41,033 nt of DNA. Source: Burkholderiales bacterium (GTDB taxonomy: Bacteria > Pseudomonadota > Gammaproteobacteria > Burkholderiales > JAEUOS01). Below, piece by piece: positions 21,668-38,301 of the stretch. Within the stretch, counting starts at the first letter, position 1. Every line of letters starts with the position of its first letter. The notes beneath the pieces were generated by a model, which saw nothing but the letters and a program-made list of their open reading frames with translations, searched no databases and was not told the origin of the DNA. Where the stretch lies: assembly GCA_016790695.1 (NCBI GenBank), contig JAEUOS010000015.1, forward strand, positions 1 to 41,033. The letters are read 5' to 3'. Made by a program: the position numbers and the translations under genes.

Positions 21668-21994
21668 ATGGCACTCAACATTTTCGGCGGCAAGGAACTC
21701 GAGGAGTTCGCGAAGTCGCTCGCCCAGGAAATCTTGAAGCGGTTTCCGCCGGCAATGGCGAACGACCCGCAGCGCCTGGTCAACCCCAAGCGGCTGACCG
21801 CGGTCATCGAGGAGGTCTGCGAAAAGGCCGCGCAGTTCAAGGACGAGAAGAAGCTCGGCATGTTCAAGAAGGCCGCGCTCGGCAACACCTTCCAGTGGGA
21901 ACTGAAGGAAATGGGCTACAACGAGAAATTCGTCGAGGTGGCCACCGAAGCGCTGATCGTCTACATCACGCGCCGGCCGTCGGCGGGCGGCTGA
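21668..21994 (+). CDS. Small conserved hypothetical protein
   Basis: A 108-residue soluble protein beginning MALNIFGGKELEEFAKSLAQ, mostly helical by composition and rich in Lys and Glu, with no signal peptide or membrane segment. I do not recognise the family. Codon use and the balanced composition look like a real gene, unlike the arginine-rich shadow frames nearby. It stands alone on the plus strand: divergent from lysR (232-base gap) and convergent with the HD-GYP gene (15-base gap). The ribosome-binding site is weak (GAGG 9-12 bases before the ATG). Function unknown. Confidence 0.7.
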   Translation: MALNIFGGKELEEFAKSLAQEILKRFPPAMANDPQRLVNPKRLTAVIEEVCEKAAQFKDEKKLGMFKKAALGNTFQWELKEMGYNEKFVEVATEALIVYITRRPSAGG

Positions 21995-22009: not shown

Positions 22010-23617
22010 TCAGCCGGCGTAGCCGGGGATCCTGGCCGGATCGACGGCGTCGATCTGCTCCGGCCGCATGAACTGCTGGGCGTATTTGAGATAGACCTTC
22101 TCGCGGATGAACACGTCGAAGAGGTCGGGATCGATGTGCCCGTTGAGCTTGAACTTGCCCAGGATCTCGAGCGATTCGGTCAGCGTCTTGCCCTTCTTGT
22201 AGGGCCGGTCCGGCGCGGTCAGCGCCTCGAAGATGTCGGCGATGCCCATCACCCGGGCCTGCACGCTCATCTGCTCGCGCCGGAGCCCCTTCGGGTAGCC
22301 CTTGCCGTCCATGCGCTCGTGGTGGCCGCCCGCGTACTCCGGCACGTTCCTCAGGTGCTTCGGCCACGGCAGCGCCTCGAGCATCTTGATGGTCGCGACG
22401 ATGTGGTAGTTGATCACCTCGCGCTCTTCCTGCGTCAGCGTGCCGGCGCGCACGGTCAGGTTCTTGACCTCGTCCTCGGTGAGGAACGGCGCATCCTCGC
22501 CGTCGACGTCGATCCAGCGGCGGGCGGCGATCTCGCGCACCCGGGCGACGTCCTCGTCGCGCATGAACTCGCCGCCGATGTTGACGCGCCGCACGAACGC
22601 GCGGTCGTCCTCGAGGCGGCGCAGCCGCTCGGCATGGGTCGCCGCGTCGATCCGACCGCGCAGCAGGTCGATCTCCGCGTCGCGCCGGAGCACCTCGAAG
22701 CGGGTGTCGATCATGTGCACCCGGTCGAACAGGGTCTGCAGCTTGGTCGCCTTGTCGACCACGTGCACCGGCGTGGTGACCTTGCCGCAATCGTGCAGCA
22801 GGCCGGCGATCTTCAGCTCGTAGCGATCCTTCTCGGTCATCGCGAAGTCGCGCAACGGCCCGACCTCGGTCGCGGTGACCGCCTCGGCGAGCATCATGGT
22901 CAGCGTCGGCACGCGCTGGCAGTGCCCGCCGGTATACGGCGACTTCTCGTCGATCGCGGTGTTCATCACGTTGATGAACGACTCGAACAGCTGCTCGAGC
23001 TGCAGTATCAGGTTGCGGTTGGTGAGGGCGATCGCCGCCTGCGACGCCAGGCTCTCGGCGAGCCGCTGGTCGGCGTCGGAGAACTGCGTCACCTCGCGGG
23101 TGGCCGGGTCGATGCGATTGAGCAGCTGCAGGACGCCGATGATCTCGTTCTCGTGGTCCCGCATCGGAATCGTGAGGAACGACGTGGAGCGATAGCCGGT
23201 CTTCTTGTCGAAATTGCGCGTGCCGGAGAAGTCGAAGCCGTCCGCGGTGTAGGCGTCGGCGATGTTGACCGCCTTCCCGGTCAGCGCCGCGTAGGCGGCC
23301 ACCATCGACATGTTGGGCGCATTCGCCTCGTCGTAGAGCTTGATCGGATAGAAGGAGATCGGTTTGCCGGTCGTGCCGCCGAGGGCGATTCCGAGCGAGT
23401 CGTTGAGCACGATCTCGAACTGCAGGCGCTCGCCGTCGAGCAGGCGGTAGAGCGTTCCGCCGTCGGCATTGGTGATGCCCTTGGCGGCGCGCAGGATCTT
23501 CTCGAGCAGGGCATTGATGTCGCGCTCCTGCGAGAGCGCGGCACCCACCGCATTGAGTTGCTCAAGGCGGGTGAACAGGTCTTCGACGGTGGCCACGAGG
23601 GTCGTGCGCTGCGGCAC
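22010..23617 (-). CDS. GAF-HD-GYP domain protein, putative cyclic-di-GMP phosphodiesterase
   Basis: A 535-residue cytoplasmic protein. Residues about 15-205 form a GAF domain resembling the cyclic-nucleotide type (DKKTGYRSTSFLTIPM), but with NR...FxxxDQ (N167, F179, D183) instead of the full NK...FxxxDE signature. Residues about 210-480 form an HD-GYP hydrolase: H275-D276 in GLLHDCGK, HHERMDGKGYPKGL (432-445), then ADIFEAL. A stretch of about 95 residues sits between the HD pair and the next conserved helix (LTQEERE), longer than usual. HD-GYP enzymes typically cleave c-di-GMP to pGpG or GMP. The predicted start is GTG, seven bases after the ATPase stop. It is the last gene of the signalling operon. 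Confidence 0.9.
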   Translation of the reverse strand: MPQRTTLVATVEDLFTRLEQLNAVGAALSQERDINALLEKILRAAKGITNADGGTLYRLLDGERLQFEIVLNDSLGIALGGTTGKPISFYPIKLYDEANAPNMSMVAAYAALTGKAVNIADAYTADGFDFSGTRNFDKKTGYRSTSFLTIPMRDHENEIIGVLQLLNRIDPATREVTQFSDADQRLAESLASQAAIALTNRNLILQLEQLFESFINVMNTAIDEKSPYTGGHCQRVPTLTMMLAEAVTATEVGPLRDFAMTEKDRYELKIAGLLHDCGKVTTPVHVVDKATKLQTLFDRVHMIDTRFEVLRRDAEIDLLRGRIDAATHAERLRRLEDDRAFVRRVNIGGEFMRDEDVARVREIAARRWIDVDGEDAPFLTEDEVKNLTVRAGTLTQEEREVINYHIVATIKMLEALPWPKHLRNVPEYAGGHHERMDGKGYPKGLRREQMSVQARVMGIADIFEALTAPDRPYKKGKTLTESLEILGKFKLNGHIDPDLFDVFIREKVYLKYAQQFMRPEQIDAVDPARIPGYAG

Positions 23618-23624
23618 GCCTGCG

Positions 23625-25997
23625 CTACTTGATGCAGACCGTGCGGACCTGCTTGATGTCCGTCACGCCCATGAGCACCTTCTCCATGCCGTCCATCTTC
23701 AGCGTGCTCATGCCGTCCTCGACCGAGGTGACGAAGATGTCGGCGACGCGCGCCTTCTCCTGGATCAGCTTCTTGACGCGCTCGGAGGCCACCATCAGCT
23801 CGTGCAGCCCGACCCGGCCCTTGTAGCCGCTGCCGCCACACTTGTCACAGCCCTTGGCCCGGTACAGCGTCAGCTTGCCGTCCTTGCCGTATTCCTGCAG
23901 CCAGTAGTCGTAGAGCTTCTTGAACTGCCCCTGCGGATCCTGCTTCCAGGCCGGCGTCTTGACCAGTTCCTCGGCGTACTCGGTGATGAACGACTTGAGC
24001 TCGTTCGCGTCGGGGTTGTACGGCTCCTTGCATTCCTTGCACAGGCGCTTCGCGAGACGCTGCGCGAGGATGCCGAGCAGCGCATCGGCGAAGTTGAACG
24101 GGTCCATGCCCATGTCGAGCAGGCGGATCACCGCCTCGGGCGCGCTGTTGGTGTGCAGCGTGGCGAACACCAGGTGGCCGGTCAGCGATGCTTCGATGCC
24201 GGTGCCGGTGGTCTCCGCGTCGCGCATCTCGCCGACCATGATGATGTCGGGATCGGCACGCAGGAAGGCCTTCATCACCACGGCGAAATCGAGCCCCGCC
24301 TTCTTGTTGACCTGCACCTGGCGCAGCCCCTTCTGGGTGATCTCGACCGGGTCCTCCGCCGTCCAGATCTTGGTGTCGGGCGTATTGAGGAACCCGAGCA
24401 CCGAGTGCAGCGTGGTGGTCTTGCCGGAGCCGGTCGGGCCGCAGACGAAGAACAGCCCGTACGGCTTGGAGACGGTCTTCTTGAGCGCCTCGAGGTTCTT
24501 CTTGGTGACGCCGAGGTTGTCGAGCGGGATGGGCTCGCCGGCCGCCAGGATCCGCATGACGACGTCCTCGACGCCGCCGGCGGTGGGGATGGTCGCGACG
24601 CGCAGCTCGATGTCGAGCGGGCCGTACTTCTTGAACTTGATCTTGCCGTCCTGCGGGCGGCGCTTCTCCGAGATGTCGAGGTCGCACATGATCTTGATGC
24701 GCGCGACGATCGCGTTTCGGTAGCTCGCCGGGATCTCGATGTAGGGTCCGAGCGAGCCGTCCTTGCGGAACCGGATCTCCGTCTTCGCCTTGCCCGGATA
24801 GGGCTCGATGTGGATGTCCGACGCGCCCTGGTGGTAGGCGTCGATGATGATCTTGTTGACCAGCTTGACCAGCTCGTTGTCCGCGGCCGCGTTGACATCG
24901 TCGCCGGTGTCGACGATCGGCTCGTCGTCACCGTCGGTGATCGCGCCGAGGATCGAGTCGATGTCGCCGCCGCTGACATCCTCGCCGAAGAACAGGTTGA
25001 GGGTCTGCTTGAACTCGGTGGCGGTGGTCACCTTGTAGACCACCTTGGAGGCGCGCGGGAAGATGTTGTTGACGATGCGCGAGCTGCGCACGCGCTCGGG
25101 ATCCAGGCAAAGCACGACCAGGCCTTCCTTGGCGTCGTCGACCGGCACCCACTGGCTCGACTCGACGTAATCGCGCTTGAGGTTCTTGAGAAGATCCGCC
25201 GGCTTGACGCGATCGGCCTTGTATCCCTCGTAAGGCACGCCGAAGAACTTGGACAGCGCGGCGCCGAGCGCCGGCACCTTGACCTGGAACTCGCCGATCA
25301 GCACATCCTCGACGTCGATTCCCTTGCGCCGCGCCGAACGCGTCGCCAGCTCGAACTCCTGCGCCGAGAGCACCGCGTCGGCGACCAGGTAGTCGTACTT
25401 GGTCTTGACCGGCTGGGCGGCCTTCTGGCGCTGGCGGAACGCGATCGCCAGCGTCTGCGTCAGGCCGATCGCGCCCTCTTCCTCGAGCTGACCGAACGGC
25501 TGGCCCGACTTGTTGTTGATGATCTGGACGACGCCGATCAGGTCGCCCGACTGCGCGTCGACGACCGGCGCGCAGAGCACCTGCTTGGTGCGGTACCCGG
25601 TGCGCTTGTCGACCTCCTGGAGGAAGCGCAGGTTGGGGTTGTGCGTCTTCAGTTCCGCGTCATCGTAGACGTCGCGGATATTGATGAGCTTCTTCGACAG
25701 CGCGACATAGCCGGCGATGCTGTGCTCCGCGATCGGCAGCTTGAGATCCTTGAAGGAGTTGAGCCCGGTCTTGACCTTCGAGATGATCGACGCCTTGTCC
25801 TCGCCGACGGTATAGATCGTCAGCCGGTCGGCGTTGAACAGGTTGCAGATCTCCAGACTCACCTCCAGCATGATCTCGTCGACGTTGTTCGTCGCGTGAA
25901 TGCGGTTGGTGACCGTCTGCAGGTTCTTCTGGAAATTGAGCTTGAGATTGACGTCGGCGGGCTGCGCGGCCGGCTTCGGACTCAGTACAGCGCTCAT
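23625..25997 (-). CDS. GspE/PilB-type ATPase with N-terminal cyclic-nucleotide-type GAF domain
   Basis: A 790-residue secretion/pilus-type ATPase. Residues about 20-190 are a GAF domain with DKRTGYRTKQVLCAPVVD and the NKSGQPFGQLEE stretch (162-173), matching the NKxnFx3DE signature of cAMP/cGMP-binding GAFs with one conservative change. Residues about 200-345 look like a GspE N-terminal (MshEN-like) region. The ATPase follows: Walker A GPTGSGKT (520-527), Walker B DIIMVGEMRD, His box HLVFATLHTN, and zinc cysteines C653, C656, C717, C720. I chose ATG 25997 (GGAG upstream) over a GTG at 26009. No pilin, platform or secretin genes are nearby, so it may be an orphan motor or an energiser of a distant type IV pilus or type II system. 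Confidence 0.9.
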   Translation of the reverse strand: MSAVLSPKPAAQPADVNLKLNFQKNLQTVTNRIHATNNVDEIMLEVSLEICNLFNADRLTIYTVGEDKASIISKVKTGLNSFKDLKLPIAEHSIAGYVALSKKLINIRDVYDDAELKTHNPNLRFLQEVDKRTGYRTKQVLCAPVVDAQSGDLIGVVQIINNKSGQPFGQLEEEGAIGLTQTLAIAFRQRQKAAQPVKTKYDYLVADAVLSAQEFELATRSARRKGIDVEDVLIGEFQVKVPALGAALSKFFGVPYEGYKADRVKPADLLKNLKRDYVESSQWVPVDDAKEGLVVLCLDPERVRSSRIVNNIFPRASKVVYKVTTATEFKQTLNLFFGEDVSGGDIDSILGAITDGDDEPIVDTGDDVNAAADNELVKLVNKIIIDAYHQGASDIHIEPYPGKAKTEIRFRKDGSLGPYIEIPASYRNAIVARIKIMCDLDISEKRRPQDGKIKFKKYGPLDIELRVATIPTAGGVEDVVMRILAAGEPIPLDNLGVTKKNLEALKKTVSKPYGLFFVCGPTGSGKTTTLHSVLGFLNTPDTKIWTAEDPVEITQKGLRQVQVNKKAGLDFAVVMKAFLRADPDIIMVGEMRDAETTGTGIEASLTGHLVFATLHTNSAPEAVIRLLDMGMDPFNFADALLGILAQRLAKRLCKECKEPYNPDANELKSFITEYAEELVKTPAWKQDPQGQFKKLYDYWLQEYGKDGKLTLYRAKGCDKCGGSGYKGRVGLHELMVASERVKKLIQEKARVADIFVTSVEDGMSTLKMDGMEKVLMGVTDIKQVRTVCIK

Positions 25998-26063
25998 GAT
26001 CGGCTCCACGTCGGACGCGCCCGGTTCACGGCGGCGCCACAGAAAATGTCAGGCTTGGCCATC

Positions 26064-27146
26064 TCAGGCCGCCTTGCGGCCGGCCCACAACCCGCCGTCG
26101 AGCAAGAATACCTTGAAGCCGCGGTGGGCGAGCAGGAATGCGGCCGCCGCGCTGCGCCGGCCGCTCTGGCAGTAGACGACATACTCGCGCGACTTGTCCA
26201 GCACGTTGAACGCGTTGCGGATTTCGGCCAGCGGGATGTTGATCGCCCCCGGCAGCCGGTCATACTGGAATTCCGACGGATAGCGAACGTCGAGCCACTG
26301 CGCGCCGCCGCCCACCTTGGCGGCGGCGGTCTCATGGCTGATGCGATTGAGCAGCGGCTCCTTGAGGAGCGCAACGAAATCGTGCTTGGCCAGGCGCAGC
26401 AGGACGCCCGGCAGCTTCATGGTCACCGTCGCGTTGCGCTTGGCATCGGATACCAGGGCCTCCTCGCCGAACGCGTCGCCGCTCTTCAGGTCGGCCAGGT
26501 TCACCACCACCCCGCCCACCAGGCGCGTGACGACCGCCCGGCCCGACTCGATCACGTAATAGTAGTCGCCCTCGTCGCCCTCGCGGATGATCACGTCCCC
26601 CTGATTCACTTCGAGGCGCGCGAAACGGTTGAGGAGCTCCGCGATATGCGCCGGCGGCAGGTTCGCGAAGGCGCCGCTGCGCAGGTTGGACATCGAGAAG
26701 ACGCCGGACATCACCTTCCACTGCGGCAGCGCCGGCGCTTCCTCCTGGGCCAGCACCTTCAGCCGGCCGGTCCGCGTCGCGTCGAACTCGGCGAGCTGAT
26801 CCCAGGTCAGCATGATGTCGAGGAGATCGCGGTCGATGCGGATGATCTCGAGCGGGGTCAGCGCCAGTCCGGAGACAACCGGCTTGCGGCGCGCCAGCGA
26901 GGCCTTCGCCGCGGGACTGCCGGCAACGACGGTTTCGCTGCTGCCGTCGGCGAAGAGCAGCCGCAGTTCCCCCTTGGCGAGAAACGCCAGTTGCGATCCG
27001 ATATCGTGCCCCTGGAACGGGTCGACGCCGGCATCGCAATGGTCGACGTAGCAAAGGTCGGCGAATTCCTTCAGCCGCGCCGGCGATAGCGATCCGAGCG
27101 GCTCGAAACGCCGCAGCAGTTCCTCTGTCACGCCGGTGTCGGTCAT
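26064..27146 (-). CDS. Cyclic nucleotide-binding domain protein with C-terminal rhodanese
   Basis: A 360-residue cytoplasmic protein. Residues about 10-115 look like a degenerate cNMP-like barrel. Residues about 150-265 are a canonical cyclic-nucleotide-binding domain with phosphate-binding cassette FGEEALVSDAKRNATV (226-241), keeping the Glu and Arg that bind cyclic phosphate and ribose. Residues about 270-358 are a rhodanese domain with active-site C326 in VVYCQSGRRSA. The combination suggests cAMP control of persulfide transfer or of a phosphatase-like cysteine reaction, though many such domains act as binding modules. It lies between the phosphodiesterase gene (seven-base gap) and the GAF-ATPase gene (66-base gap). 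The N-terminal domain lacks a clear cassette. Confidence 0.88.
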   Translation of the reverse strand: MTDTGVTEELLRRFEPLGSLSPARLKEFADLCYVDHCDAGVDPFQGHDIGSQLAFLAKGELRLLFADGSSETVVAGSPAAKASLARRKPVVSGLALTPLEIIRIDRDLLDIMLTWDQLAEFDATRTGRLKVLAQEEAPALPQWKVMSGVFSMSNLRSGAFANLPPAHIAELLNRFARLEVNQGDVIIREGDEGDYYYVIESGRAVVTRLVGGVVVNLADLKSGDAFGEEALVSDAKRNATVTMKLPGVLLRLAKHDFVALLKEPLLNRISHETAAAKVGGGAQWLDVRYPSEFQYDRLPGAINIPLAEIRNAFNVLDKSREYVVYCQSGRRSAAAAFLLAHRGFKVFLLDGGLWAGRKAA

Positions 27147-27153
27147 GGGGCAG

Positions 27154-27921
27154 TCAGAACTCGAAAACCTGGCCGTTCTGCAGCATGCGCGGCTTGTAGT
27201 CGCCGGCGAATTCCTCGATTTCCTGCATCGTCAGCTCGATCTCGCCCGGCTTCAGGTGGGTGATGAAGATCTCGGCAGACCGTTCGAGCTTCGCGAGTTC
27301 CTCGGCCAGCAGGCTCGGGCACAGGTGCTTGGAGGCGATCGCCAGCTGCTTCTCGCGATTGCAGAACGCGGTTTCGATGACCAGGTATTTCAGGTTGGGC
27401 AGGCGGTTGACGATCTTCCAGAGCGGATCGTTGATGTAGGTGTCGCCGGTGAATACCAGCGAATTCTTGCCGCTGTCGATCTGGTACCCGACCGCCGGCA
27501 CCGTGTGATTGGCCGGCAGGGCCGTGAACGTCCGCCCGTCGATGACCAGCTTCTGCCCGACGCGAATGCGCTCGTAGCGCATGAACGGCACATCCGCGGT
27601 CGGAATCGCCGTGAAATCCGGCCAGACGCTCCAGTTGAAGATGTGCTTCTTGAGCGTGTCGAGCGTTTCCTCGATGCCGTAGATCGTCAGCGGCTTGTCG
27701 CGCATCGCCCCGACGGTGTCGACGATGAACGGGATGGTGGCGATGTGGTCGAGATGCGAATGGGTCAGGAAGATGTGGTCGATCATCGACAGTTCGGTGA
27801 GCGACAGGTCGGCCACGCCCGTGCCCGCGTCGATGAGCACGTCGTTGTCGACGCGCAGCGCCGTCGTGCGCAGGTGCTTGCCGCCGATGCCGCCGGAACA
27901 GCCGAGGACCTTTACTTTCAT
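27154..27921 (-). CDS. Metallo-beta-lactamase-fold 3',5'-cyclic-nucleotide phosphodiesterase (class II type)
   Basis: A 255-residue MBL-fold hydrolase. The metal site is THSHLDHIATIPF (about residues 53-65), containing the HxHLDH signature of class II cyclic-nucleotide phosphodiesterases such as yeast PDE1. Further metal ligands are in ALPANHTVPA, VFTGDTYIND and FITHLKPGE. The N-terminus MKVKVLGCSGGIGGKHLRTT is typical. It would hydrolyse cAMP (or cGMP) to the 5'-monophosphate. It lies 24 bases after the adenylate cyclase gene, which strongly supports a cAMP-removing role. Other MBL hydrolases, for example of RNase Z type, share part of the motif, so enzymatic assignment is likely but not certain. 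Confidence 0.85.
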   Translation of the reverse strand: MKVKVLGCSGGIGGKHLRTTALRVDNDVLIDAGTGVADLSLTELSMIDHIFLTHSHLDHIATIPFIVDTVGAMRDKPLTIYGIEETLDTLKKHIFNWSVWPDFTAIPTADVPFMRYERIRVGQKLVIDGRTFTALPANHTVPAVGYQIDSGKNSLVFTGDTYINDPLWKIVNRLPNLKYLVIETAFCNREKQLAIASKHLCPSLLAEELAKLERSAEIFITHLKPGEIELTMQEIEEFAGDYKPRMLQNGQVFEF

Positions 27922-27945
27922 CTGATCGACGCCGCGCAGAAGGAC

Positions 27946-30201
27946 CTATTTCTCGTCAAAGGTGGTCACGCCGTCCCAGTTCGGGCCCGGCGGATTCCTG
28001 CGGAACTGTATCACGCGCTCGGCGTACTTCTCGTACAAATAGCAGTCAGGATTCATGCGCTGCAGGTTGAGAAGGTTCATCTCGACCTGATCCCAGGCCT
28101 GGGCCCGATAGGCCTTCAGCGCGTCCCGCCAGATCTTCAGCTCGTCCTTGAGCTTCTTGTCCGCCTCGGATTCCATGCACAGCGGTTCGTAGATCGCCAC
28201 CGGCTCGTTCTTGCCCTTGACGCGAATGCGGTCAAGTTCCTTGAAGATCACGTCCTTGACCACCTTCTCCGTCGCTTCTCCGACCAGGATCCCGACCCCA
28301 TACTCCTTGGTCCGACCTTCCAGGCGCGACGCCAGGTTGACCGGATCGCCCATCACGGTGTACGCCTTGCGCACTTTGGATCCCATGTCGCCGACACGGA
28401 CATTCCCTGAATTCACGCCGATGCCGATCTTCAGCGTCGGCCAACCCTTGGCGCGGAACTTCTCGTTGAGTTCGGCCGCAGCCTTCTGCATTTCCAGCGC
28501 CGTCAGGACGCCCTGGCGCGCATGCTCTGCGTCCGGCACCGGCGCCCCCCAGAATGCCATCACCGCATCGCCGATGTACTTGTCGAGGGTGCCACGATTC
28601 TTCGAGATCACCGCCGACATGCCGGTCAGATAGTCGTTGATGTAGGAAGCAAGGTCGCCCGGCGAGAGGCTTTCCGAGATCGTGGTGAAGCCGCGCACAT
28701 CGGAGAACAGGATCGTCAGGTCCGCCGCCTTCGGTTCCATGCTGTACTTGCTTGGATCGCGCGCCATCTCGTCGACCAGTTCGGGCGGGACGTACTGGCC
28801 GAACAGTGCCGTGAATTCCCGCTTGCTGCGCGACTCCACAAAATAGCCGTAGGCCATGTTGAGGGTGAACAAGGCCGCGGTCAGCAGAAGGGAGGCCGCC
28901 AGCGGCAGCACGAGGTCCATCCTCGTGTAGACAAAGTAGTTGAAGCCGATGATCAGGAGCATGCCGGCGATGGCGACGCCGGTCGCGCGCATCGGCGACA
29001 GGAAAGGCAGCAGGAGCGCAAGCACGATGCCGCCGAACGAAAGCAGAAGCACCTCGGCGCCGAGCGTGAAAGGCGGGCGCTCCTTGAAGTTCTGCGACAT
29101 CATCCCCGACAGGAGGTTGGCGTGGATCTCCACCCCGGGGTAGGCCTCCCCCACTGGCGTGGAGCGCAGGTCCAGCAAGCCTGGAGCCGTGGTTCCCCAC
29201 AGGGCGATCTTTCCCTTCAGGTCGGCCTGAGCGACCTTGCCTTCATAGACGTCGGCCAGCGAAATGTAGCGGAACGAGTTGCCCTTCGGACCACCGCGTC
29301 CGCGATACGGCACCAGGGCGCTGACGGTCTTGTCGACCGGTATGCGAAACGCGCGCACGCCCGACCCCGTATTGGACTTCATCTCGAGCCACTCGAGTCC
29401 CTGGTAGTTCTTGGACAGGAAGCGCTCGGGCGGATACCCGGGCTCGAGATTCGGCGACCCCAGCAGCGCACGGAACATCGCCAGCGAGAGCGACTCGTAG
29501 TAACCGCCCTCGTACTCCGAAATCATCGGCACGCGACGCACCACCCCGTCGAGATCGACGATCGGGTTGAACAGGCCGGAGGCGAGCGCCGACTTCTGAA
29601 AAACCTCGAGATTGGCGCCGTGCCCGTTCCACTTGAACCAATCGATGGTGCGGCCCTTGAAGGTGCCGCTGGGCATCACCGGCGGCGGCAGCGTCCCGCT
29701 CTTTTCCGCGTTGTCCTCGGACGACAGGTAGTAGCCGAGGACGACCGGCTTGCCGGCCATCGCCTTGGCAAAGCGCGCGTCGTAGTCGAGCGCCGGCCGC
29801 AGCCGCTCGAGTTCGCCGCGAAACTGTTCGTTGTCCTTGAGCGCACCGTCGCGCGCCAGCGACTCCAGCGTCCGGATCCCCGAACTGACATCGGGCTCGG
29901 CAAAGACCACGTCGAAGCCCACCATCACCACGCCGTACTGGGTGAACAGCTTGTCGATGAGCTCGGCCATCTTGTCCCGGCTCCAGGGCCAGCGGCCGAG
30001 CTTGCCCAGGCTCTTCTCGTCGATATCGAGGATGACGATGCGCTCGTCCGGCGTCGCCGGCATGGTGAGACGAACGCGCGCATCGTAGATGATCGCGTCG
30101 AGCTGGGAGATGATGCGGATGTTGAAGAACTCAGCCGCATGCACCAGGAAAAGCGACAGCACCAGAAGCCCGAGCCCGATGCGGACGATGTGCTGCTTCA
30201 C
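27946..30201 (-). CDS. CHASE2-sensor class III adenylate/guanylate cyclase
   Basis: A 751-residue membrane enzyme. TM1 is near residues 7-21, then a long periplasmic CHASE2 sensor (about 25-375, with DERIVILDIDEKSLGKLGRW and LWGTTAPGLLDLRSTPVG). Two or three membrane helices follow (about 380-452), then a cytoplasmic class III catalytic domain (about 490-680). Metal ligands are D501 (LFSDVRGFT) and D545 (YIGDAVMAFWG). Base recognition is by K541 and T615, and transition-state residues N622 and R626 lie in VNLASRLEG. Lys/Thr is the class IIIb pattern, usually an ATP-using cyclase. The start is GTG with GGGGAG upstream. The extracytoplasmic sensor should control cAMP output; its ligand is unknown. 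Confidence 0.92.
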   Translation of the reverse strand: MKQHIVRIGLGLLVLSLFLVHAAEFFNIRIISQLDAIIYDARVRLTMPATPDERIVILDIDEKSLGKLGRWPWSRDKMAELIDKLFTQYGVVMVGFDVVFAEPDVSSGIRTLESLARDGALKDNEQFRGELERLRPALDYDARFAKAMAGKPVVLGYYLSSEDNAEKSGTLPPPVMPSGTFKGRTIDWFKWNGHGANLEVFQKSALASGLFNPIVDLDGVVRRVPMISEYEGGYYESLSLAMFRALLGSPNLEPGYPPERFLSKNYQGLEWLEMKSNTGSGVRAFRIPVDKTVSALVPYRGRGGPKGNSFRYISLADVYEGKVAQADLKGKIALWGTTAPGLLDLRSTPVGEAYPGVEIHANLLSGMMSQNFKERPPFTLGAEVLLLSFGGIVLALLLPFLSPMRATGVAIAGMLLIIGFNYFVYTRMDLVLPLAASLLLTAALFTLNMAYGYFVESRSKREFTALFGQYVPPELVDEMARDPSKYSMEPKAADLTILFSDVRGFTTISESLSPGDLASYINDYLTGMSAVISKNRGTLDKYIGDAVMAFWGAPVPDAEHARQGVLTALEMQKAAAELNEKFRAKGWPTLKIGIGVNSGNVRVGDMGSKVRKAYTVMGDPVNLASRLEGRTKEYGVGILVGEATEKVVKDVIFKELDRIRVKGKNEPVAIYEPLCMESEADKKLKDELKIWRDALKAYRAQAWDQVEMNLLNLQRMNPDCYLYEKYAERVIQFRRNPPGPNWDGVTTFDEK

Positions 30202-30263
30202 TGTCGCGTCTCCCCTCGGGCGTCACGCCCGCGCTGGCCGCCTGCCGCGGCGGCGCCGCCCGA

Positions 30264-30986
30264 CTACTTGTAGAAAAACTCCATTTTCGTGCCGGCTATC
30301 TCCACGACGTCATGGTCGTTGAGAGGATGCGCCTGGGCATCCAGTGTCTTGCCGTTGACGATCGGGAAGTTCGCGCCTTCGACGTGGGTGATGAAGTAAC
30401 CCTGCGGACGCCGGGTGATCACCGCGACCTGGACGCCCGGCTTGCCCAGCGTGGTGAGCGCCTTGGTCAGCAACAACTCCTTGCCGACGTTCGCCCCCGA
30501 GAGCAACTGGATGGCGCCCTGCCGGGCCGGGGCGGCCGGTGGAGGTGGGGCGACAGGCGCAGCCGCCTGCATCGCTGCCGTGGCCATCGCCGCAGGCGCC
30601 GCGGCAGGCGCCGCCGCGGCCACCGGTGCCGGCCGCGGCATCGAACCGGGGCGCAACACCATGGTCTTCTCGAAGTCGGCCGCCGCCGCAGCCTTGGGCT
30701 GCTCGTTGATGTACTTGAGCTTGTACTTGCCCAGTTCGATCACGTCGTTCGGCTGGAGAAAGTGCTTCTTGATCGGCGCGCCGTTGACCAGCGTGCCGTT
30801 GGTCGAGCCGAGGTCTTCAAGGAAAGAATCGTTGAGGATCGTGACGATCACAGCATGCTCGCCGGACACCGCCAGATTGTCGATCTGGATGTCGTTGTGC
30901 GGCTTGCGGCCGATGGTGGTGCGCTCCTTCGTCAAGGTGATTTCCTTGAGCACCAGCCCGTCCATGCTGAGGATTAGCTTCGCCAT
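30264..30986 (-). CDS. FHA-domain protein with degenerate second FHA domain
   Basis: A 240-residue cytoplasmic phospho-threonine reader. The first FHA domain (about 5-92) has all key elements: GRKPHNDIQID, SGEHA and the LGSTNGTLVNG loop. A Pro/Ala-rich linker (about 97-157) follows, containing EKTMVLRPG around T108. The second domain (about 158-240) has an FHA-like outline (ALTTLGKPG, VNGKTL, NDHDVVEIAG) but lacks the Ser-x-x-His binding pair. AAAAGGA precedes the ATG. The gene lies directly after the PP2C gene in the kinase operon, so it probably binds the phosphorylated kinase or its targets. The ExTMVL motif resembles motifs repeated in the kinase. Confidence 0.9.
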   Translation of the reverse strand: MAKLILSMDGLVLKEITLTKERTTIGRKPHNDIQIDNLAVSGEHAVIVTILNDSFLEDLGSTNGTLVNGAPIKKHFLQPNDVIELGKYKLKYINEQPKAAAAADFEKTMVLRPGSMPRPAPVAAAAPAAAPAAMATAAMQAAAPVAPPPPAAPARQGAIQLLSGANVGKELLLTKALTTLGKPGVQVAVITRRPQGYFITHVEGANFPIVNGKTLDAQAHPLNDHDVVEIAGTKMEFFYK

Positions 30987-31044
30987 AGCACGTTCCTTTT
31001 TCTCTTTCGCTGTTGACGCCTAAGCGACCTGCGATCGCGTAAGT

Positions 31045-31878
31045 TTACTTGAACCACCTGAGAAACCTGCCGAACAAGCCCCTGGCGGCAGGGTATTCCC
31101 GCAGAACCTTCACGAGCAGCACCGATACGTTATCACGCCCACCGTTGTCATTGGCCATTTGAACGAGCTGCTGCGCGGCCAAATTGAGGTTGCCGCCGAG
31201 CGTTTCGAGCGTCAGGGCGATCTCCTCGTCGGGCACCATGTCGGACAGGCCGTCGGAGCACAACAGGTAGATGTCGCCCGGACGCGTCTCGTAATCGTGG
31301 ATCTCGGCCTCGACTGTCGGGTCGATGCCGAGTGCCCGCGTGACGAGATTCTTGTTCTGCGAATGCTTGGCCTCTTCCGGCGTGATCATGCCGCTGTCGA
31401 TCTGCTCCTGCAGCAACGAGTGATCGCGGGTGATCTGCGCGAATTCGCCCGCGCGCTGCCGGTACAGGCGCGAATCGCCGATGTGCGCGACGGTCACCTT
31501 GTTGTCATAGAACAACGCGACCACCAGCGTGGTGCCCATGCCTGAGTACTGCGGCTGCGATTGCGCCGCGGAAAAGATCGAATGGTTGGCCTTGGCAATC
31601 TGTTCCCGCAGCATGCGCGCCGCGTGGGTGCGCAATTCGGCACCACTTTCCGGGTCCGGCTCGAACGGCGCGCGCTGACCGATCGCCGCCTGCAGTTCCG
31701 TCATGAGCACCGTGGTCGCCATGCCGCTGGCGACCTCGCCGGCGTTGTAGCCGCCCATGCCGTCAGCCAGGATGGCCAGACCGTTGCGGGCATCGTTGGC
31801 GATCGAGTCCTCGTTGTGGGACCGCACCATCCCCGGATCGGAATGGCCGACGATCTCGATCGCGTCTGCGAGGTTCAT
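31045..31878 (-). CDS. PP2C-family Ser/Thr protein phosphatase
   Basis: A 277-residue soluble PP2C (PPM) phosphatase with all the usual motifs: SDPGMVRSHNEDS (13-25), LADGMGGYNAGEVAS (38-51, metal-binding Asp39), GMGTTLV, HIGDSRLYR, LLCSDGLSDMV and GGRDNVSVLL. It is Mn/Mg dependent and should remove phosphate from Ser/Thr on the kinase and its substrates. It starts nine bases after the kinase stop, so the pair is almost certainly cotranscribed. The last 15 residues (GLFGRFLRWFK region) form a basic, amphipathic end that might touch the membrane where the kinase sits; that point is inference. Confidence 0.95.
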   Translation of the reverse strand: MNLADAIEIVGHSDPGMVRSHNEDSIANDARNGLAILADGMGGYNAGEVASGMATTVLMTELQAAIGQRAPFEPDPESGAELRTHAARMLREQIAKANHSIFSAAQSQPQYSGMGTTLVVALFYDNKVTVAHIGDSRLYRQRAGEFAQITRDHSLLQEQIDSGMITPEEAKHSQNKNLVTRALGIDPTVEAEIHDYETRPGDIYLLCSDGLSDMVPDEEIALTLETLGGNLNLAAQQLVQMANDNGGRDNVSVLLVKVLREYPAARGLFGRFLRWFK

Positions 31879-31887
31879 GCGCTTGCC

Positions 31888-34815
31888 TTACAGGGAGATA
31901 TCGACGTCGGGCGGCGGCTTGGCGGGCGACGCAGGTGCCGGCTTCGTCGCGCCCGCCGGCGGCTGCGCCTGCAGGATGACGGTCTTGTCGGCATCCGCCG
32001 GCGCCTGCAGGATGACGGTCTCGCCGGCATGCGCACTGGCAGCCGGCGCGGGGCTCGCGGCTGGCGCCGCCGGCGCCGATGGCGTTGGCGCGGCAGCGGC
32101 CGGCGCAACGGGTGCGGCCTGGAGAACAACCGTTCCTCCAGCGTGCGGATTGGGCGCGGCCGGCTGCGCCGGGGCGGCCGCAGGAATCGACTGTGTCGGC
32201 GGGGCCGTACCGCCGGAGCGCTGGGCCGCAGGGATGTTCATGCCGGTTGCGGTCGATGGCGTCTCGCCGAACGGACGCAGCGCGGCGGCGAACTCCTCGC
32301 CGGTCTGGAATCGCTGGTCGGCGTCCTTGGCCATCGCGCGGCGCAGCACGTCGGCGAGCCCTTCGGGCACCGCCGGATTCAGGGTGCGAATGTCGACCGG
32401 ATCCTCGTTGGCGATCTTGAACATCAGTTGCGCCATCGAGTCGCCGACAAACGGCAGGTGCCCGCACAGCATCTGATACAGGCTCACGGCAAGCGAGAAC
32501 AGATCGGATCGCCCGTCGACCTTCTTGCCGGAGAGCTGCTCGGGCGACATGTAGGACGGCGTGCCCAGCACCATGCCGGTCTTGGTCTTCGACGAATCGG
32601 TCACCCGGGCGATGCCGAAGTCGGTCACCTTGGGGTTGTCGGACTCGAGGTCGTACATGATGTTCGCCGGCTTGATGTCCCGGTGAACCACATTCTGCCG
32701 ATGCGCATAGCCAAGCGCGTCGGCGACACGCGCGGTGATCGACACCACGCGCGGAATCGGCAGCAGGGTCTCGGGCTTGGTGAACGGCACCAGGTCCTTG
32801 CCCTTGAGCAGCTCCATGGCGATGAAGCACAGGTCGTGCTCCTCGCCCGCGTCATAGATGGTGACGATGTGCGGGTGGTTGAGCCGGCCCGCGGTCTCGG
32901 CCTCGCGGAAGAATCGCGACTTCGCCTCGTCGAGTTCGTCCGCCTCGAACTCCTGCGACAGGGCCATCGTCTTGATCGCCACCACCCGGCTGATCTTGGG
33001 ATCCCGCCCCAGATAGACCACGCCCATCGCACCCTTGCCCAGTTCCTTCTCGATCTGGTACCTGCCGAGCATCGGCTTTTCGCCCGCACCGGCGCCGTCG
33101 AGGATGCTGGTGTTGGTGCGCCCCGAGGCGCCGCCGAGAATGACCGTCTCCGACAGATTCTTGGCCCGGACGATCTTCTGTTCCAGGTCCTTGAACTTCG
33201 GATCGTAGGTGGCCATGTGCTCGTAGACCGCCTGCGCCTTGTTGAACTGCCGCTTGCGCTCGAAGTCAAGCGCAAGGTTGTACAGGTTGTCCATCAGCGC
33301 CCCGTCAAAGGGCACCTTGCGAAACTTGTCGAAGGCCATGTCGAGCTGACCCTGGCCTTGGAAGGCCAGTCCGAGCATCCGGTTCGATTCGGCCGATTCG
33401 ACGTCGGACTTCTGCTTGCCGGCCTCGGTGACGATGAAGCGTTTCGTGGTCAGCAGCAGGTGGCCGACCAGGAGCAGCGTTGCCGGGACCATCAGCTGAA
33501 TCCAGATCGCGGCGGAAACCATCAGCGCGAAATGCGTCGCCAGCAGCAGCACCAGGATGGCAAGGGTGATCATCGCGGCGGGACGCGCCTTCAGTCGCGG
33601 CAGAAGCGCGATGAGGTAGGCGGCGACCAGCAGGAACACCAGGAACTCGACGAACGCCGACCACGAGGGAGACACGAAGAAGTGCTCGGAAAGGATCGAC
33701 GACACCGTGTGCGCGGAGATCTCGACCGGTGCGAACCCCGGCGACACCGGGGTGGTGAAACTGTTGCCGACGCCGGCGGCCGTGGCGCCGATGAGGACGA
33801 TCTTGCCCGCATATTCGCTCGCCTGGATCTTGCCCGACAGCACATCGAAGAACGAGTCGACCTTGAAGGCGCGCTTGTCGCCGCGATCCTTGTAGAAGTA
33901 GGTGAGCATGCGGGCGTCGCGATCGGTGGTGATCGCGAGCTTGCCGAGCTTCAGCTGCTCGCCCCAGGAAACCTTGATGTCGGCGATCCCCAGATTGAGC
34001 GACTTCGCCGCCACCATGAGCGCGAACGACGGCACATAGCGATCGTAGTACTGGAGCAGCAGCGGCTCGGCGCGAATCGCGCCGTCGCCATCCGGCGTCT
34101 GGGTCAGATGTCCCTGCGCGGCGGCGGTGACACCAAGAATCTCGATCGGGTACTGGATCTGGCTGGTCGGGATGATGTCGGTTCCATTCTTGTCGACCAG
34201 GGTGAAGTTGGCGACATACGGCGGCAACTCCTTATCCGGCTTGCCGCGCGGCTCGCCGACGCGCAGATCGTTCGCGAGGACCACGCTCTTGGCGCGCCCC
34301 ATGCTGTCGGCAAGCTTGCGATCGGTATTGAGGTCGGCCTCGGCCTGCTTGAGGAGCGCGCCGAACTGCCCGAATTCCGCTTGCGCCTGCGCCGGCGATC
34401 CGTCGCCGCCTTGCGCACCGGCCGGTTGGGGCTGGCCCCCGCCGATCTTGCCGAACACGTCGATCAGCTTGTTGATGTAGACCAGCCCGGGATCCTGCTG
34501 CGGCTCGAAAAAGAATACCGTGTGGCCGATGACCTTCGCCTTGGCCGCCACCAGCATGTCGATCATCTTGGCGTGGATATCGCGGCTCCACGGCCAGCGA
34601 CCGATGTTCTTGATGCTCTCGTCGTCGATGGCGATGACCGCGATCTGGTTGTTGGGCGCCTTCGAGGACGCCTGCACGCCGAGGTCATAGGCCTTGCGAT
34701 CGAGGCTGCGCATCAGGTCGCTGCCCACCACGTAGACGCCGACAAAGAACACCAGCGCGATCGCCAACCCCAGAAACCAGTCGGATTTCCAGAAATCCCC
34801 TTTGAGTTTGGCCAT
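31888..34815 (-). CDS. CHASE2-sensor transmembrane Ser/Thr protein kinase with TVIL-motif tail
   Basis: A 975-residue membrane kinase. TM1 lies at about 12-31, a periplasmic CHASE2 sensor at about 35-380 (NQIAVIAIDDESIKNIGRW; GKIVLIGATAAGVG), and three membrane helices at about 388-456. A TPR-like region (about 478-550) and a PknB-type kinase domain (about 585-850) follow: glycine loop GKGAMGVVY, K615 in VAIK, HRDIKPAN (D713), DFG (D732), GTPSYMSPEQ. The Pro/Ala-rich tail carries three T-V-[VI]-L-Q-A motifs (T895, T933, T945), and a fourth TVIL (T557) precedes the kinase domain. ATG 34815 has AGGGGA upstream. It heads the signalling operon and shares its sensor type with the adenylate cyclase. 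Confidence 0.95.
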   Translation of the reverse strand: MAKLKGDFWKSDWFLGLAIALVFFVGVYVVGSDLMRSLDRKAYDLGVQASSKAPNNQIAVIAIDDESIKNIGRWPWSRDIHAKMIDMLVAAKAKVIGHTVFFFEPQQDPGLVYINKLIDVFGKIGGGQPQPAGAQGGDGSPAQAQAEFGQFGALLKQAEADLNTDRKLADSMGRAKSVVLANDLRVGEPRGKPDKELPPYVANFTLVDKNGTDIIPTSQIQYPIEILGVTAAAQGHLTQTPDGDGAIRAEPLLLQYYDRYVPSFALMVAAKSLNLGIADIKVSWGEQLKLGKLAITTDRDARMLTYFYKDRGDKRAFKVDSFFDVLSGKIQASEYAGKIVLIGATAAGVGNSFTTPVSPGFAPVEISAHTVSSILSEHFFVSPSWSAFVEFLVFLLVAAYLIALLPRLKARPAAMITLAILVLLLATHFALMVSAAIWIQLMVPATLLLVGHLLLTTKRFIVTEAGKQKSDVESAESNRMLGLAFQGQGQLDMAFDKFRKVPFDGALMDNLYNLALDFERKRQFNKAQAVYEHMATYDPKFKDLEQKIVRAKNLSETVILGGASGRTNTSILDGAGAGEKPMLGRYQIEKELGKGAMGVVYLGRDPKISRVVAIKTMALSQEFEADELDEAKSRFFREAETAGRLNHPHIVTIYDAGEEHDLCFIAMELLKGKDLVPFTKPETLLPIPRVVSITARVADALGYAHRQNVVHRDIKPANIMYDLESDNPKVTDFGIARVTDSSKTKTGMVLGTPSYMSPEQLSGKKVDGRSDLFSLAVSLYQMLCGHLPFVGDSMAQLMFKIANEDPVDIRTLNPAVPEGLADVLRRAMAKDADQRFQTGEEFAAALRPFGETPSTATGMNIPAAQRSGGTAPPTQSIPAAAPAQPAAPNPHAGGTVVLQAAPVAPAAAAPTPSAPAAPAASPAPAASAHAGETVILQAPADADKTVILQAQPPAGATKPAPASPAKPPPDVDISL
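31965..32021 (-). repeat. Direct repeat encoding two TVILQA motifs in the kinase tail
   Basis: An identical 21-base unit occurs at 31965-31985 and 32001-32021, offset by 36 bases (12 codons). Each copy encodes the TVILQA motif of the kinase tail. A third, diverged copy of the motif (TVVLQA) is encoded near 32131. The identity at DNA level suggests a recent in-frame duplication that multiplied the motif. Confidence 0.7.
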
Positions 34816-35001: not shown

Positions 35002-35031
35002 ATGATACGCGTTCTTGCAGTTGACCATCAA
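35002..35031 (-). promoter_or_regulatory. Candidate sigma70-type promoter of the signalling operon
   Basis: Read on the minus strand, TTGATG (35026-35031) and TATCAT (35002-35007) are separated by 18 bases. They match the -35 and -10 consensus at four and five of six positions. The site lies just after the terC terminator and about 190 bases before the kinase start, where the operon promoter is expected. AT content is higher here than in the surroundings. Confidence 0.42.
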
Positions 35032-35063
35032 GTCTGATCGGCGCCAAGCCCGCTCCCCGGCGG

Positions 35064-35096
35064 CACAAAAACAACAGGGCGCCACGAGGCGCCCTG
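35064..35096 (-). terminator. Rho-independent terminator after terC
   Basis: On the minus strand a perfect 9-bp stem, CAGGGCGCC with GGCGCCCTG and a TCGT loop (35075-35096), is followed directly by TTGTTTTTG (35065-35074 region). It begins 22 bases after the terC stop codon. It is the clearest intrinsic terminator in the window and separates sucCD-terC from the kinase operon. Confidence 0.85.
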
Positions 35097-35117
35097 TCGA
35101 TGTCGACAACGGCGGCG

Positions 35118-35819: not shown

Positions 35820-35851
35820 TGCATGTCTCCTGTTGTGCCGCCGGGCCTGCG

Positions 35852-36739: not shown

Positions 36740-36797
36740 CTCTTCCTCGATGTTTGCGAGCAATCGGGCGCCGCGGGGCTCGACGCCTGGCAGGACC

Positions 36798-37958: not shown

Positions 37959-38301
37959 CGGATTCCCCCAATGTCGCACCGCAGCGACCGGCGCCGCTGC
38001 CGACACAATTTACGGCGCCAGGACGGGCATTTCCTTGGCATAAGTCAAGTGCCCGGAGCCGCTACGTCAACAAGAATGCCAGGGACAGCGCCGGCGTGCC
38101 GTCATGCCACGATGTCGCGGATCGACCTTCCCGCGACAACGGAAGGCGACCATCGCTTCCGGACTACCGACCGATGCGAACCCGCGTACCCTGTGCGAAG
38201 CCCCTGCAGACGGCCGGATGGCCCCAATCCACCCCATCCCGCCCGCGTCGGGCAGCGATGGTAGCACAGCGCATGGCCCCTCTCCGGGTGTCGGAGAATG
38301 G
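37959..38301. other. Intergenic region between recX and sucC
   Basis: A 343-base gene-free stretch. It should contain the sucCD-terC promoter on the minus strand. TTGACG and TTGACT hexamers occur around 38045-38070 (minus strand), but no well-spaced -10 is visible, so I do not call a promoter. Short open frames here are arginine- or cysteine-rich and look random. No convincing terminator follows recX. Confidence 0.5.

What the first reader, a model, noticed from the sequence alone, without database searches (positions are those of the whole stretch)
22010..34815. Eight-gene operon coupling cAMP signalling with Ser/Thr phosphorylation
Sequence shows eight same-strand genes with gaps of 7-66 bases: CHASE2 kinase, PP2C phosphatase, FHA protein, CHASE2 adenylate cyclase, class II-type cNMP phosphodiesterase, cNMP-binding/rhodanese protein, GAF-GspE/PilB ATPase and GAF-HD-GYP. 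Writer, eraser and reader of phospho-Thr stand beside maker, breaker and readers of cAMP. I infer one signalling circuit in which periplasmic sensing sets both outputs and the end targets are a pilus- or secretion-type motor and c-di-GMP turnover. I do not know of this set described as a named system.
Basis: partly seen in the sequence, partly recalled or inferred. Interest (0 to 1): 0.85.

Follow-up and report, generated by a model that had tools for sequence, protein, structure and literature searches.

The report
Conserved cAMP and phosphothreonine signalling cluster
Many betaproteobacteria keep the same run of seven or eight genes in the same order, holding a predicted maker, breaker and readers of cAMP beside a writer, eraser and reader of phosphothreonine and a pilus-type motor ATPase, and this set would likely work as one switch that couples two signals usually studied apart.

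Summary
In detail: eight same-strand genes, 22010-34815, gaps 7-66 bases, every domain confirmed, catalytic residues intact. The set is not scattered. Of 76 PDE-centred loci with enough flank, fetched from a 150-genome sample of the order, 23 carry all seven core genes, in one order; 7 of these 23 also carry the cNMP/rhodanese gene. Of 67 ATPase orthologues, 63 lie within 5 kb of a PDE match. Most seven-gene clusters of this sample lack the window's upstream neighbours. (1) The ATPase's GAF domain best matches the cAMP-binding GAF domains of CyaB2 (E 1.4e-29); three of five cAMP-contact residues are kept in 112-114 of 114 relatives. (2) The FHA protein, nearest to OdhI and GarA, carries a conserved DFEKTMVLRP linker peptide; the kinase carries SETVILGG. 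I propose a GarA-like phosphothreonine switch beside a cAMP-gated PilB-class ATPase. Binding, phosphorylation, single transcript and target are untested. The set is modular, and the ATPase is under the PilB and GspE cut-offs. I found no description in the papers searched.

The parts
31888..34815 (-). K: CHASE2 membrane Ser/Thr kinase (Hanks type), ATG start; C-terminal tail with extra T-V-(V/I)-L copies
   Evidence: Pfam CHASE2 179.8 bits, Pkinase 177.2 bits; VAIK Lys, HRD Asp, DFG Asp 83 of 83 relatives; tail copies seen
33130..33153 (-). SETVILGG peptide before the kinase domain, candidate phosphothreonine docking site (Thr557 from the ATG)
   Evidence: Thr in 77 of 83, Leu at +3 in 82 of 83
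31045..31878 (-). P: PP2C-type phosphatase
   Evidence: Pfam PP2C_2; NCBIfam Stp1_PP2C_phos over cut-off, 256.4 against 230; three metal Asp 113 of 113
30264..30986 (-). FHA: two FHA-fold domains joined by a linker predicted to be disordered; first has the pThr-binding residues, second lacks the loop
   Evidence: Pfam FHA; Arg/Ser/His 118 of 119, Asn 119 of 119; model pLDDT 85.7, linker mostly under 50; N versus C domain hhalign 96.6%
30648..30677 (-). DFEKTMVLRP linker peptide of the FHA protein, candidate phosphoswitch (Thr108)
   Evidence: Thr 107 of 119; commonest residue at positions 96-103 and 114-140 only 11-60 of 119; two Pro columns at 141 and 144 reach 93 and 97
27946..30201 (-). AC: CHASE2 class III adenylate cyclase
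   Evidence: Pfam; best solved relative CyaB 3r5g, 1.3e-34; Lys541, Thr615 and metal Asp 102 of 102
27154..27921 (-). PDE: metallo-beta-lactamase-fold predicted cAMP phosphodiesterase (class II type)
   Evidence: PDEase_II 62.8 bits, cut-off 23.7; best solved relative PDE1 3.8e-9; metal ligands 173 of 173
26064..27146 (-). CNR: cNMP-binding domain + rhodanese; optional member
   Evidence: Pfam; FGE Glu, RNAT Arg and rhodanese Cys 49 of 49
23625..25997 (-). GSP: GAF + weak MshEN-like + T2SSE ATPase (PilB class)
   Evidence: T2SSE 382 bits; Walker A Lys 114 of 114; NCBIfam PilB 478.6 under cut-off 675.65
25440..25883 (-). GAF domain of GSP, CyaB2-type cAMP pocket (R62, T64, V79, D134, numbered from the GTG at 26009)
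   Evidence: 1ykd E 1.4e-29; R 113, T 112, V/I 110, D 114 of 114
22010..23617 (-). HDG: GAF + HD-GYP
   Evidence: HD_5 143.6 bits; HD and GYP residues 102 of 102
23024..23521 (-). GAF domain of HDG, cNMP-type but with the adenine-N1 Arg replaced by Gly/Ala
   Evidence: best solved relative PDE5 6.7e-15, CyaB2 4.3e-13; G/A 102 of 102 at the Arg place
35002..35099 (-). terminator-like stem after TerC (35099-35072) and promoter-like site (35031-35002) before the kinase
   Evidence: consensus scan only, counts not above shuffles

Best explanation
This is a gene cluster (likely one operon) conserved across betaproteobacteria, in which a CHASE2 membrane kinase, a PP2C phosphatase and a GarA-like FHA protein would form a phosphothreonine switch, while a CHASE2 adenylate cyclase and a predicted phosphodiesterase would set the cAMP level that a CyaB2-type GAF domain on a PilB-class ATPase is predicted to read. 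Shown by sequence: the domains, intact active sites, conserved order and linkage, the GAF pocket residues, and the two conserved threonine peptides. Inferred: both CHASE2 domains sense the same kind of envelope signal. The kinase phosphorylates its own SETVIL peptide and the FHA protein's EKTMVL peptide. The first FHA domain binds the kinase peptide and can instead close on its own linker peptide, as OdhI and GarA are held to do (recalled), while PP2C resets both. cAMP binds the GAF domain of the ATPase and changes its motor activity. cAMP also tunes the GAF-HD-GYP enzyme, and so c-di-GMP, as in Tlr0485. The ATPase would act on type IV pilus or type II secretion machinery encoded elsewhere.
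For: Order and linkage: 23 of 76 flank-complete order-sample loci hold all seven core genes; 63 of 67 ATPase orthologues lie within 5 kb of a PDE match (fragments counted); seven-gene clusters occur in 17 of 39 family codes. Of those 23, 17 have no SucD/TerC upstream, so the order is not only a shared place. GAF: best solved match CyaB2 1.4e-29, and 19 of 21 matches bear the name of a cyclic-nucleotide cyclase or phosphodiesterase. Of two control GAF domains from the same genome, one gave a histidine kinase first (1.7e-6; PDE2A second, 2.7e-5) and a mixed list, the other no match. The CyaB2 contacts Arg291, Thr293, Asp356 (PMC4411481, passages) are R, T, D in 113, 112, 114 of 114. FHA: best solved matches OdhI and GarA by sequence; Foldseek puts GarA and OdhI chains first. 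The linker Thr is conserved in 107 of 119. Linker E-x-T-x-V-hydrophobic-R fits the peptide around the ETTS motif (PMC8546545, passage). Cyclase: nearest solved relative is an adenylate cyclase, with adenine-type Lys and Thr 102 of 102 (the meaning of these residues is recalled). PDE and HD-GYP are fused in two loci. A cAMP-responsive GAF-HD-GYP is known, Tlr0485 (PMC8846402, passage).
Confidence: 0.5

Rival explanations
1. The cluster is two or three functionally separate modules (kinase-phosphatase-FHA; cyclase-PDE; ATPase-HD-GYP) that stay neighbours by shared descent or for co-expression but do not regulate each other.
For: Partial sets are common: AC-PDE (4), PDE-GSP (5), P-FHA-PDE (2), P-FHA-PDE-GSP-HDG (7), PDE alone (13) of 76. 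Some partial sets lie at the same SucD/TerC site, for example 4 of 5 PDE-GSP loci. Two ATPase orthologues lie on another contig than the cluster of their own genome (G080, G105).
Against: The long-range order is the same in loci of many families, and 17 of 23 seven- or eight-gene order-sample clusters have no SucD/TerC upstream. P-FHA is kept next to PDE even when kinase and cyclase are gone. The ATPase and HD-GYP carry cNMP-type GAF domains suited to read the product of the cyclase module.
Confidence: 0.25
2. The predicted phosphodiesterase is an RNA- or other phosphoester hydrolase of the RNase Z kind, and the GAF domains bind another ligand, so cAMP is only a side theme.
For: NCBIfam RNase_Z scores 74.9 bits against 34 for the cyclic-nucleotide phosphodiesterase model, both under cut-off. 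Some sources name relatives ribonuclease BN. The HD-GYP GAF lacks the adenine Arg.
Against: Pfam PDEase_II is over its cut-off (62.8 against 23.7) and the best solved match is PDE1. It sits next to an adenylate cyclase and a cNMP-binding gene. The ATPase GAF matches CyaB2 at 1.4e-29.
Confidence: 0.15
3. A type VI secretion threonine-phosphorylation pathway (PpkA-PppA-Fha, names recalled) that has lost or left its secretion genes.
For: Same trio of kinase, PP2C phosphatase and FHA protein; T6SS FHA model TIGR03354 is hit weakly (42.8 bits).
Against: Far under the T6SS FHA cut-off of 120.25. FHA is closer to OdhI/GarA. No T6SS domain among the window ORFs scanned, though not all were scanned.
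Confidence: 0.05

Closest known systems
GarA / OdhI with PknB / PknG (actinobacterial FHA phosphoswitch)
   Same: FHA domain is nearest among solved structures by sequence and Foldseek; a conserved Thr peptide with Glu at -2, Val at +2 and Arg at +4 lies in a flexible segment beside the FHA domain.
   Different: Motif lies after, not before, the FHA domain (place in GarA recalled); a second, degenerate FHA-fold domain follows; gene sits with its own CHASE2 kinase and PP2C gene; no 2-oxoglutarate dehydrogenase gene was seen beside it.
CyaB2 (Anabaena adenylyl cyclase) and cNMP-binding PDE GAF domains
   Same: Best solved match of the ATPase GAF; Arg, Thr, Asp cAMP contacts kept.
   Different: The GAF is fused to a PilB-class ATPase instead of a cyclase or PDE; Asn359 is Thr; NKFDE incomplete.
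PilB / GspE / MshE assembly ATPases
   Same: T2SSE domain, Walker A and B, conserved cysteine; best solved match PilB at 2.5e-107.
   Different: Under the NCBIfam equivalog cut-offs for PilB and GspE; extra GAF domain; no platform-protein gene found nearby; the genome has a separate T2SSE-T2SSF-prepilin-peptidase set and a separate T2SSE-T2SSF pair.
Tlr0485 of Thermosynechococcus, cAMP-responsive GAF-HD-GYP c-di-GMP phosphodiesterase (PMC8846402, passage)
   Same: GAF fused to HD-GYP.
   Different: Adenine-N1 Arg is Gly/Ala in 102 of 102 here (that of Tlr0485 not checked); here it sits in a cyclase-PDE-kinase cluster.
PpkA-PppA-Fha threonine phosphorylation pathway of type VI secretion (recalled)
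   Same: Kinase, PP2C phosphatase and FHA protein encoded together.
   Different: No T6SS genes among the ORFs scanned; FHA under the T6SS cut-off; adds cAMP enzymes and a motor ATPase.
CHASE2 adenylate cyclases of Sinorhizobium meliloti (PMC13001267, listing and start of abstract only)
   Same: CHASE2 sensor on a cyclase.
   Different: No kinase, FHA, PDE or ATPase partner is mentioned in what I saw.

Membership tests
PilB / GspE assembly ATPase | NCBIfam equivalog score over cut-off | tested here: not met
   PilB 478.6 against 675.65; GspE 438.8 against 630.25
PilB / GspE assembly ATPase | T2SSE domain with Walker A Lys and Walker B Glu | tested here: met
   382 bits; 114 and 113 of 114
PilB / GspE assembly ATPase | platform protein (T2SSF/PilC) gene beside it | tested here: not met
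   tblastn at 1e-4 of two T2SSF proteins of the same genome found nothing in the window or in 180 loci; no T2SSF on contig C93
cNMP-binding GAF domain (CyaB2 / PDE type), ATPase GAF | sequence closer to solved cNMP GAF domains than to others | tested here: met
   CyaB2 1.4e-29; 19 of 21 matches named cyclic-nucleotide cyclase or PDE (the others 4mcw and 3trc); two control GAF domains did not show this
cNMP-binding GAF domain (CyaB2 / PDE type), ATPase GAF | cAMP-contact residues Arg291, Thr293, Ile308, Asp356, Asn359 | tested here: inconclusive
   R 113, T 112, V/I 110, D 114 of 114; Asn is Thr in 113 of 114
cNMP-binding GAF domain (CyaB2 / PDE type), ATPase GAF | NKFDE motif | tested here: inconclusive
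   N and F 114 of 114; no K among the 112 residues listed at the next place, no D among those listed at the D place, E 85 of 114; placing of D and E is mine
cNMP-binding GAF domain (CyaB2 / PDE type), ATPase GAF | binds cAMP | not testable with these tools
   needs calorimetry or radioligand assay
GarA/OdhI-type FHA phosphoswitch | FHA pThr-binding residues Arg, Ser, His, Asn | tested here: met
   118, 118, 118 and 119 of 119
GarA/OdhI-type FHA phosphoswitch | N-terminal ETTS phosphoacceptor motif | tested here: not met
   motif is DFEKTMVLRP, after the FHA domain; matches only E-x-T-x-V-hydrophobic-R
GarA/OdhI-type FHA phosphoswitch | NCBIfam OdhI score over cut-off | tested here: not met
   52.3 against 200
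Class III adenylate cyclase | two metal Asp, adenine-type Lys and Thr, Asn/Arg (assignment recalled) | tested here: met
   each 102 of 102; nearest solved relative CyaB
Class II cAMP phosphodiesterase | Pfam PDEase_II over cut-off and HxHLDH metal motif | tested here: met
   62.8 against 23.7; HSHLDH in the window, its H, H, D, H 173 of 173
Class II cAMP phosphodiesterase | hydrolyses cAMP | not testable with these tools
   assay needed; NCBIfam gives RNase Z a higher, sub-threshold score
HD-GYP c-di-GMP phosphodiesterase | HD and GYP motifs intact | tested here: met
   102 of 102 at H, D, H, G, Y
T6SS FHA protein TagH/Fha | TIGR03354 over cut-off | tested here: not met
   42.8 against 120.25
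T6SS threonine phosphorylation pathway | linked to T6SS structural genes | tested here: inconclusive
   none among the window ORFs scanned with Pfam, not all ORFs scanned

The most novel reading that the evidence does not exclude
Betaproteobacteria own a dedicated three-messenger switch encoded in one operon: cAMP gates a PilB-class motor ATPase directly through a CyaB2-type GAF domain, a membrane kinase and its FHA partner share one docking peptide so that phosphothreonine sets the state of the complex, and the same cAMP tunes c-di-GMP breakdown through a GAF-HD-GYP enzyme. As far as and my recall go, it would be the first secretion-type ATPase to take cAMP as a direct ligand.
Probability: 0.4. 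Interest if true: 0.85.

Novelty: new variant of a known kind. Interest (0 to 1): 0.68.

Why it matters
If right, cAMP would act on a pilus- or secretion-type motor directly and not only through transcription factors, and phosphothreonine and cAMP signalling, usually studied apart in bacteria, would be wired together in one unit found in Gallionella, Sideroxydans, Azospira, Sulfuritalea, Propionivibrio, Methyloversatilis and others (names from record titles of loci with all seven core genes). The two conserved threonine peptides and the GAF pocket give single-residue tests.

Tried and rejected
Considered and set aside. (1) The kinase tail repeats (T-V-V/I-L copies) as the conserved feature: the screen found them only in L086-L088, beside the window itself; the conserved copy lies before the kinase domain. 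The tail cut was crude: most tails came out empty, so copies elsewhere could be missed. (2) Joint loss of the two Thr motifs as proof of co-evolution: Fisher p 9e-5, but about two independent FHA losses on the tree, sign test not significant. (3) Fold as proof of ligand: VIA put PtsP GAF first, Foldseek put the GAF of an HD-GYP protein, PDE5, PDE10 and CyaB2 near the top. (4) c-di-GMP binding by the MshEN-like part: 25.2 bits against a cut-off of 23.1, against 61.5, 57.5 and 44.0 in three other T2SSE ATPases of the genome; not pursued. (5) T6SS pathway: under cut-off. (6) First merging of tblastn hits wrongly joined CHASE2 and GAF domains of different genes; redone by open frames and profiles. 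(7) The TerC query was out of frame and its hits are void. Redone in frame, TerC lies within 4 kb upstream of the kinase in 27 and SucD in 30 of 78 loci with a whole kinase and 1.5 kb before it. So my first idea, that the flanks are not conserved, was wrong; what holds is that most order-sample clusters keep the order without these flanks. (8) First GspF query was a wrong frame; redone. In one search the row labelled GGRDN Asp reads the Arg before it, so I cite only the other three PP2C Asp.

Dropped or limited rows. Of the PDE matches of 140 bits or more, 100 places were fetched; G096, G001, G136 (38-39% identity) and G074 (32%) were not, nor fragments and weaker matches. Of the 100, 76 had enough flank; of 80 named loci, 48 had. 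The two sets overlap (for example L085 is L005). One of the 67 ATPase orthologues is cut by a contig end, and three of its PDE neighbours are fragments (G081, G123, G131). Residue counts use distinct proteins over a coverage threshold, which drops partial genes. One cluster locus, L021, bears a Rhodospirillales title and one PDE locus, L076, a Bordetella parapertussis title; I did not test the labels.

Papers. Searches. Passages only: PMC4411481, PMC8546545, PMC1262709, PMC8846402, PMC2877116. Others were seen as listings with starts of abstracts. 'No description in print' rests on (0 papers; 2; 20 of 21 listed; 12; 40 of 47 listed; 12 of 14 listed), judged by listing, in this open-licence library alone.
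Full report
Observation. Pfam confirms each domain. Active-site residues are present and near invariant in relatives: kinase Lys/Asp/Asp 83 of 83; three PP2C Asp 113 of 113; cyclase metal and adenine-type residues 102 of 102; PDE metal ligands 173 of 173; HD-GYP residues 102 of 102; ATPase Walker A 114 of 114; cNMP Arg and rhodanese Cys 49 of 49. A succinyl-CoA-ligase-like pair and TerC lie upstream, a small convergent gene (21668-21994, +) and a LysR gene downstream.

Conservation. I searched the PDE protein in 150 genomes of the order (109 with a match at E 1e-3, many weak), fetched 100 places, and fetched 80 named loci. I assigned open frames with profiles built from the named set. Of 76 order-sample loci with at least 7 kb upstream and 5.4 kb downstream, 7 have all eight genes in order, 16 have all but the cNMP/rhodanese gene, 7 are P-FHA-PDE-GSP-HDG, and 13 have the PDE alone. 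Of 48 such named loci, 20 have all eight (one with a split cyclase frame) and 14 lack only the cNMP/rhodanese gene. All seven core genes occur in 29 of the 100 fetched places, in 17 of 39 family codes, and in 42 of 80 named loci. From the ATPase side, 63 of 67 orthologues lie within 5 kb of a PDE match; the other four are in G020, G080, G032 and G105. Orthologues of the ATPase at E 1e-230 were found in 1 of 274 genomes of a class sample (the window's own) and 3 of 299 of a phylum sample, all of the same order. The set is thus, as sampled, betaproteobacterial, conserved in order, and modular.

Place or function? SucD- and/or TerC-like genes lie within 4 kb upstream of the cluster, as in the window, in 15 of 19 named and 5 of 7 order-sample eight-gene clusters, but in only 3 of 12 (plus 2 of 2 with a second kinase behind) named and 1 of 16 order-sample seven-gene clusters. 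The eight-gene form thus mostly keeps one ancestral place, while most seven-gene clusters of the order sample keep the order without these flanks. Reduced sets occur at the same place too: 4 of 5 PDE-GSP and 3 of 3 FHA-AC-PDE loci have SucD/TerC upstream. In 73 loci (both sets pooled) with a whole kinase and enough downstream flank, 68 have the cyclase, 67 the ATPase, 67 the HD-GYP gene and 30 the cNMP/rhodanese gene.

The GAF domain of the ATPase. Against solved structures its best match is the tandem GAF of Anabaena CyaB2 (1.4e-29), and 19 of 21 matches bear the name of a cyclic-nucleotide cyclase or phosphodiesterase. Two other GAF domains of the same genome served as controls: one matched a histidine kinase first (1.7e-6) and PDE2A second (2.7e-5) in a mixed list of 19, the other nothing. 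In CyaB2, Arg291, Thr293, Ile308, Asp356 and Asn359 touch cAMP (PMC4411481, passages). The alignment places these at R62, T64, V79, D134 and T137. In 114 relatives they are R 113, T 112, V or I 110, D 114 and T 113. The AlphaFold model (pLDDT 84.3) is a GAF fold. Foldseek ranks the GAF of an HD-GYP protein, PDE5, PDE10 and CyaB2 near the top, but VIA ranks PtsP first, so the ligand claim rests on sequence. The GAF of the HD-GYP protein keeps Thr (101 of 102), Ile (96) and Asp (102) but has Gly or Ala for the Arg in all 102. Its ligand is less certain, though a cAMP-responsive GAF-HD-GYP, Tlr0485, is known (PMC8846402, passage).

The phosphothreonine side. The FHA protein's nearest solved relatives are OdhI and GarA by sequence (1.9e-9, 3e-9) and by Foldseek; by VIA FhaA and OdhI tie. 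The model shows two FHA-fold domains and a linker of low confidence, likely disordered. The second domain aligns with the first (hhalign 96.6%) but lacks the pThr loop. In the linker one stretch stands out: D98, F104, E103, K98, T107, M105, R100 of 119, while the commonest residue at positions 96-103 and 114-140 is 11-60 of 119; two Pro columns nearer the second domain (93, 97) are the other strongly conserved ones. The kinase has S-E-T-V-I-L-G-G before its catalytic domain (T 77, L 82 of 83). Both have hydrophobic residues at +1 to +3, usually Leu at +3, and an acidic residue at -1 or -2. That FHA domains often read the +3 residue is recalled. GarA/OdhI carry an ETTS motif (PMC8546545, passage) whose surroundings share E-x-T-x-V-hydrophobic-R with the linker peptide. 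This is resemblance, not membership: place and exact motif differ.

Is there a motor target? The ATPase matches PilB best among solved structures (2.5e-107) but is under the NCBIfam cut-offs for PilB and GspE. The genome has other T2SSE ATPases (8 T2SSE matches in all). Of the three checked, two lie beside platform-protein genes, one of these with a prepilin peptidase as well; the third lies at a contig end. No T2SSF gene was found by tblastn (two queries) in the window or the 180 loci. I infer an auxiliary ATPase acting on machinery encoded elsewhere; nothing here shows it.

Other links. In two loci the PDE is fused to the GAF-HD-GYP protein: L167 (Pfam) and L170 (open frame of 797 aa holding both matches). 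A second PDE context places it next to a DUF3391-HD-GYP protein (L060, L105). Both tie cAMP breakdown to HD-GYP.

Against. Modules come and go, and part of the order is shared place. FHA keeps its Thr motif in 13 of 22 flank-complete loci without the kinase, and joint motif loss is not significant once relatedness is counted. The PDE's substrate is unproven. No expression or binding data exist. I rate the circuit as likely but unproven, and score interest for the direct cAMP-motor reading and the testable peptides.

Noticed in passing
L167:9352-11832 and L170:9503-11893: PDE domain fused to GAF-HD-GYP in one 827-aa (L167) and 797-aa (L170) open frame inside the same cluster, without the ATPase beside it.
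   Followed up: partly
window 35118-38006 (-) and upstream of the cluster in many loci: A SucC/SucD-like CoA-ligase pair and TerC precede the cluster; SucD-like in 30 and TerC in 27 of 78 loci with a whole kinase, a shared ancestral place that also holds reduced sets such as TerC/SucD then PDE-GSP.
   Followed up: partly
L060:10769-11995, L105:10536-11879 (also L045, L051, L062, L069, L076, L081, L083, L107 by weak match): A second recurrent PDE context: the PDE is followed by a DUF3391-HD-GYP protein instead of the cluster (Pfam checked for L060 and L105 only).
   Followed up: partly
window 21668-21994 (+): 108-aa protein without a Pfam match, convergent with the end of the cluster; tblastn relatives in 24 fetched loci (L005 and L085 are one contig), many just past the HD-GYP gene.
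   Followed up: partly
own genome contig C82 (L186, L188-L193, L195): Open frames of 1136 and 1816 aa holding arrays of GAF domains.
   Followed up: no
L034:17653-19287, L038:17966-19802, also L040, L042, L054, L137: A second kinase-like gene a few kb downstream, in L034, L038 and L137 followed by or overlapping a frame with a weak cNMP/rhodanese match.
   Followed up: no
own genome C215 and C134 (L003, L004): Two further CHASE2 proteins in the genome; the C215 one lies close to a weak PDE-type match at 10956-11282.
   Followed up: no
L035, L049, L053, L084: Loci without kinase and cyclase (three titled Accumulibacter, L053 Pseudomonadota) have lost the FHA linker Thr motif.
   Followed up: partly
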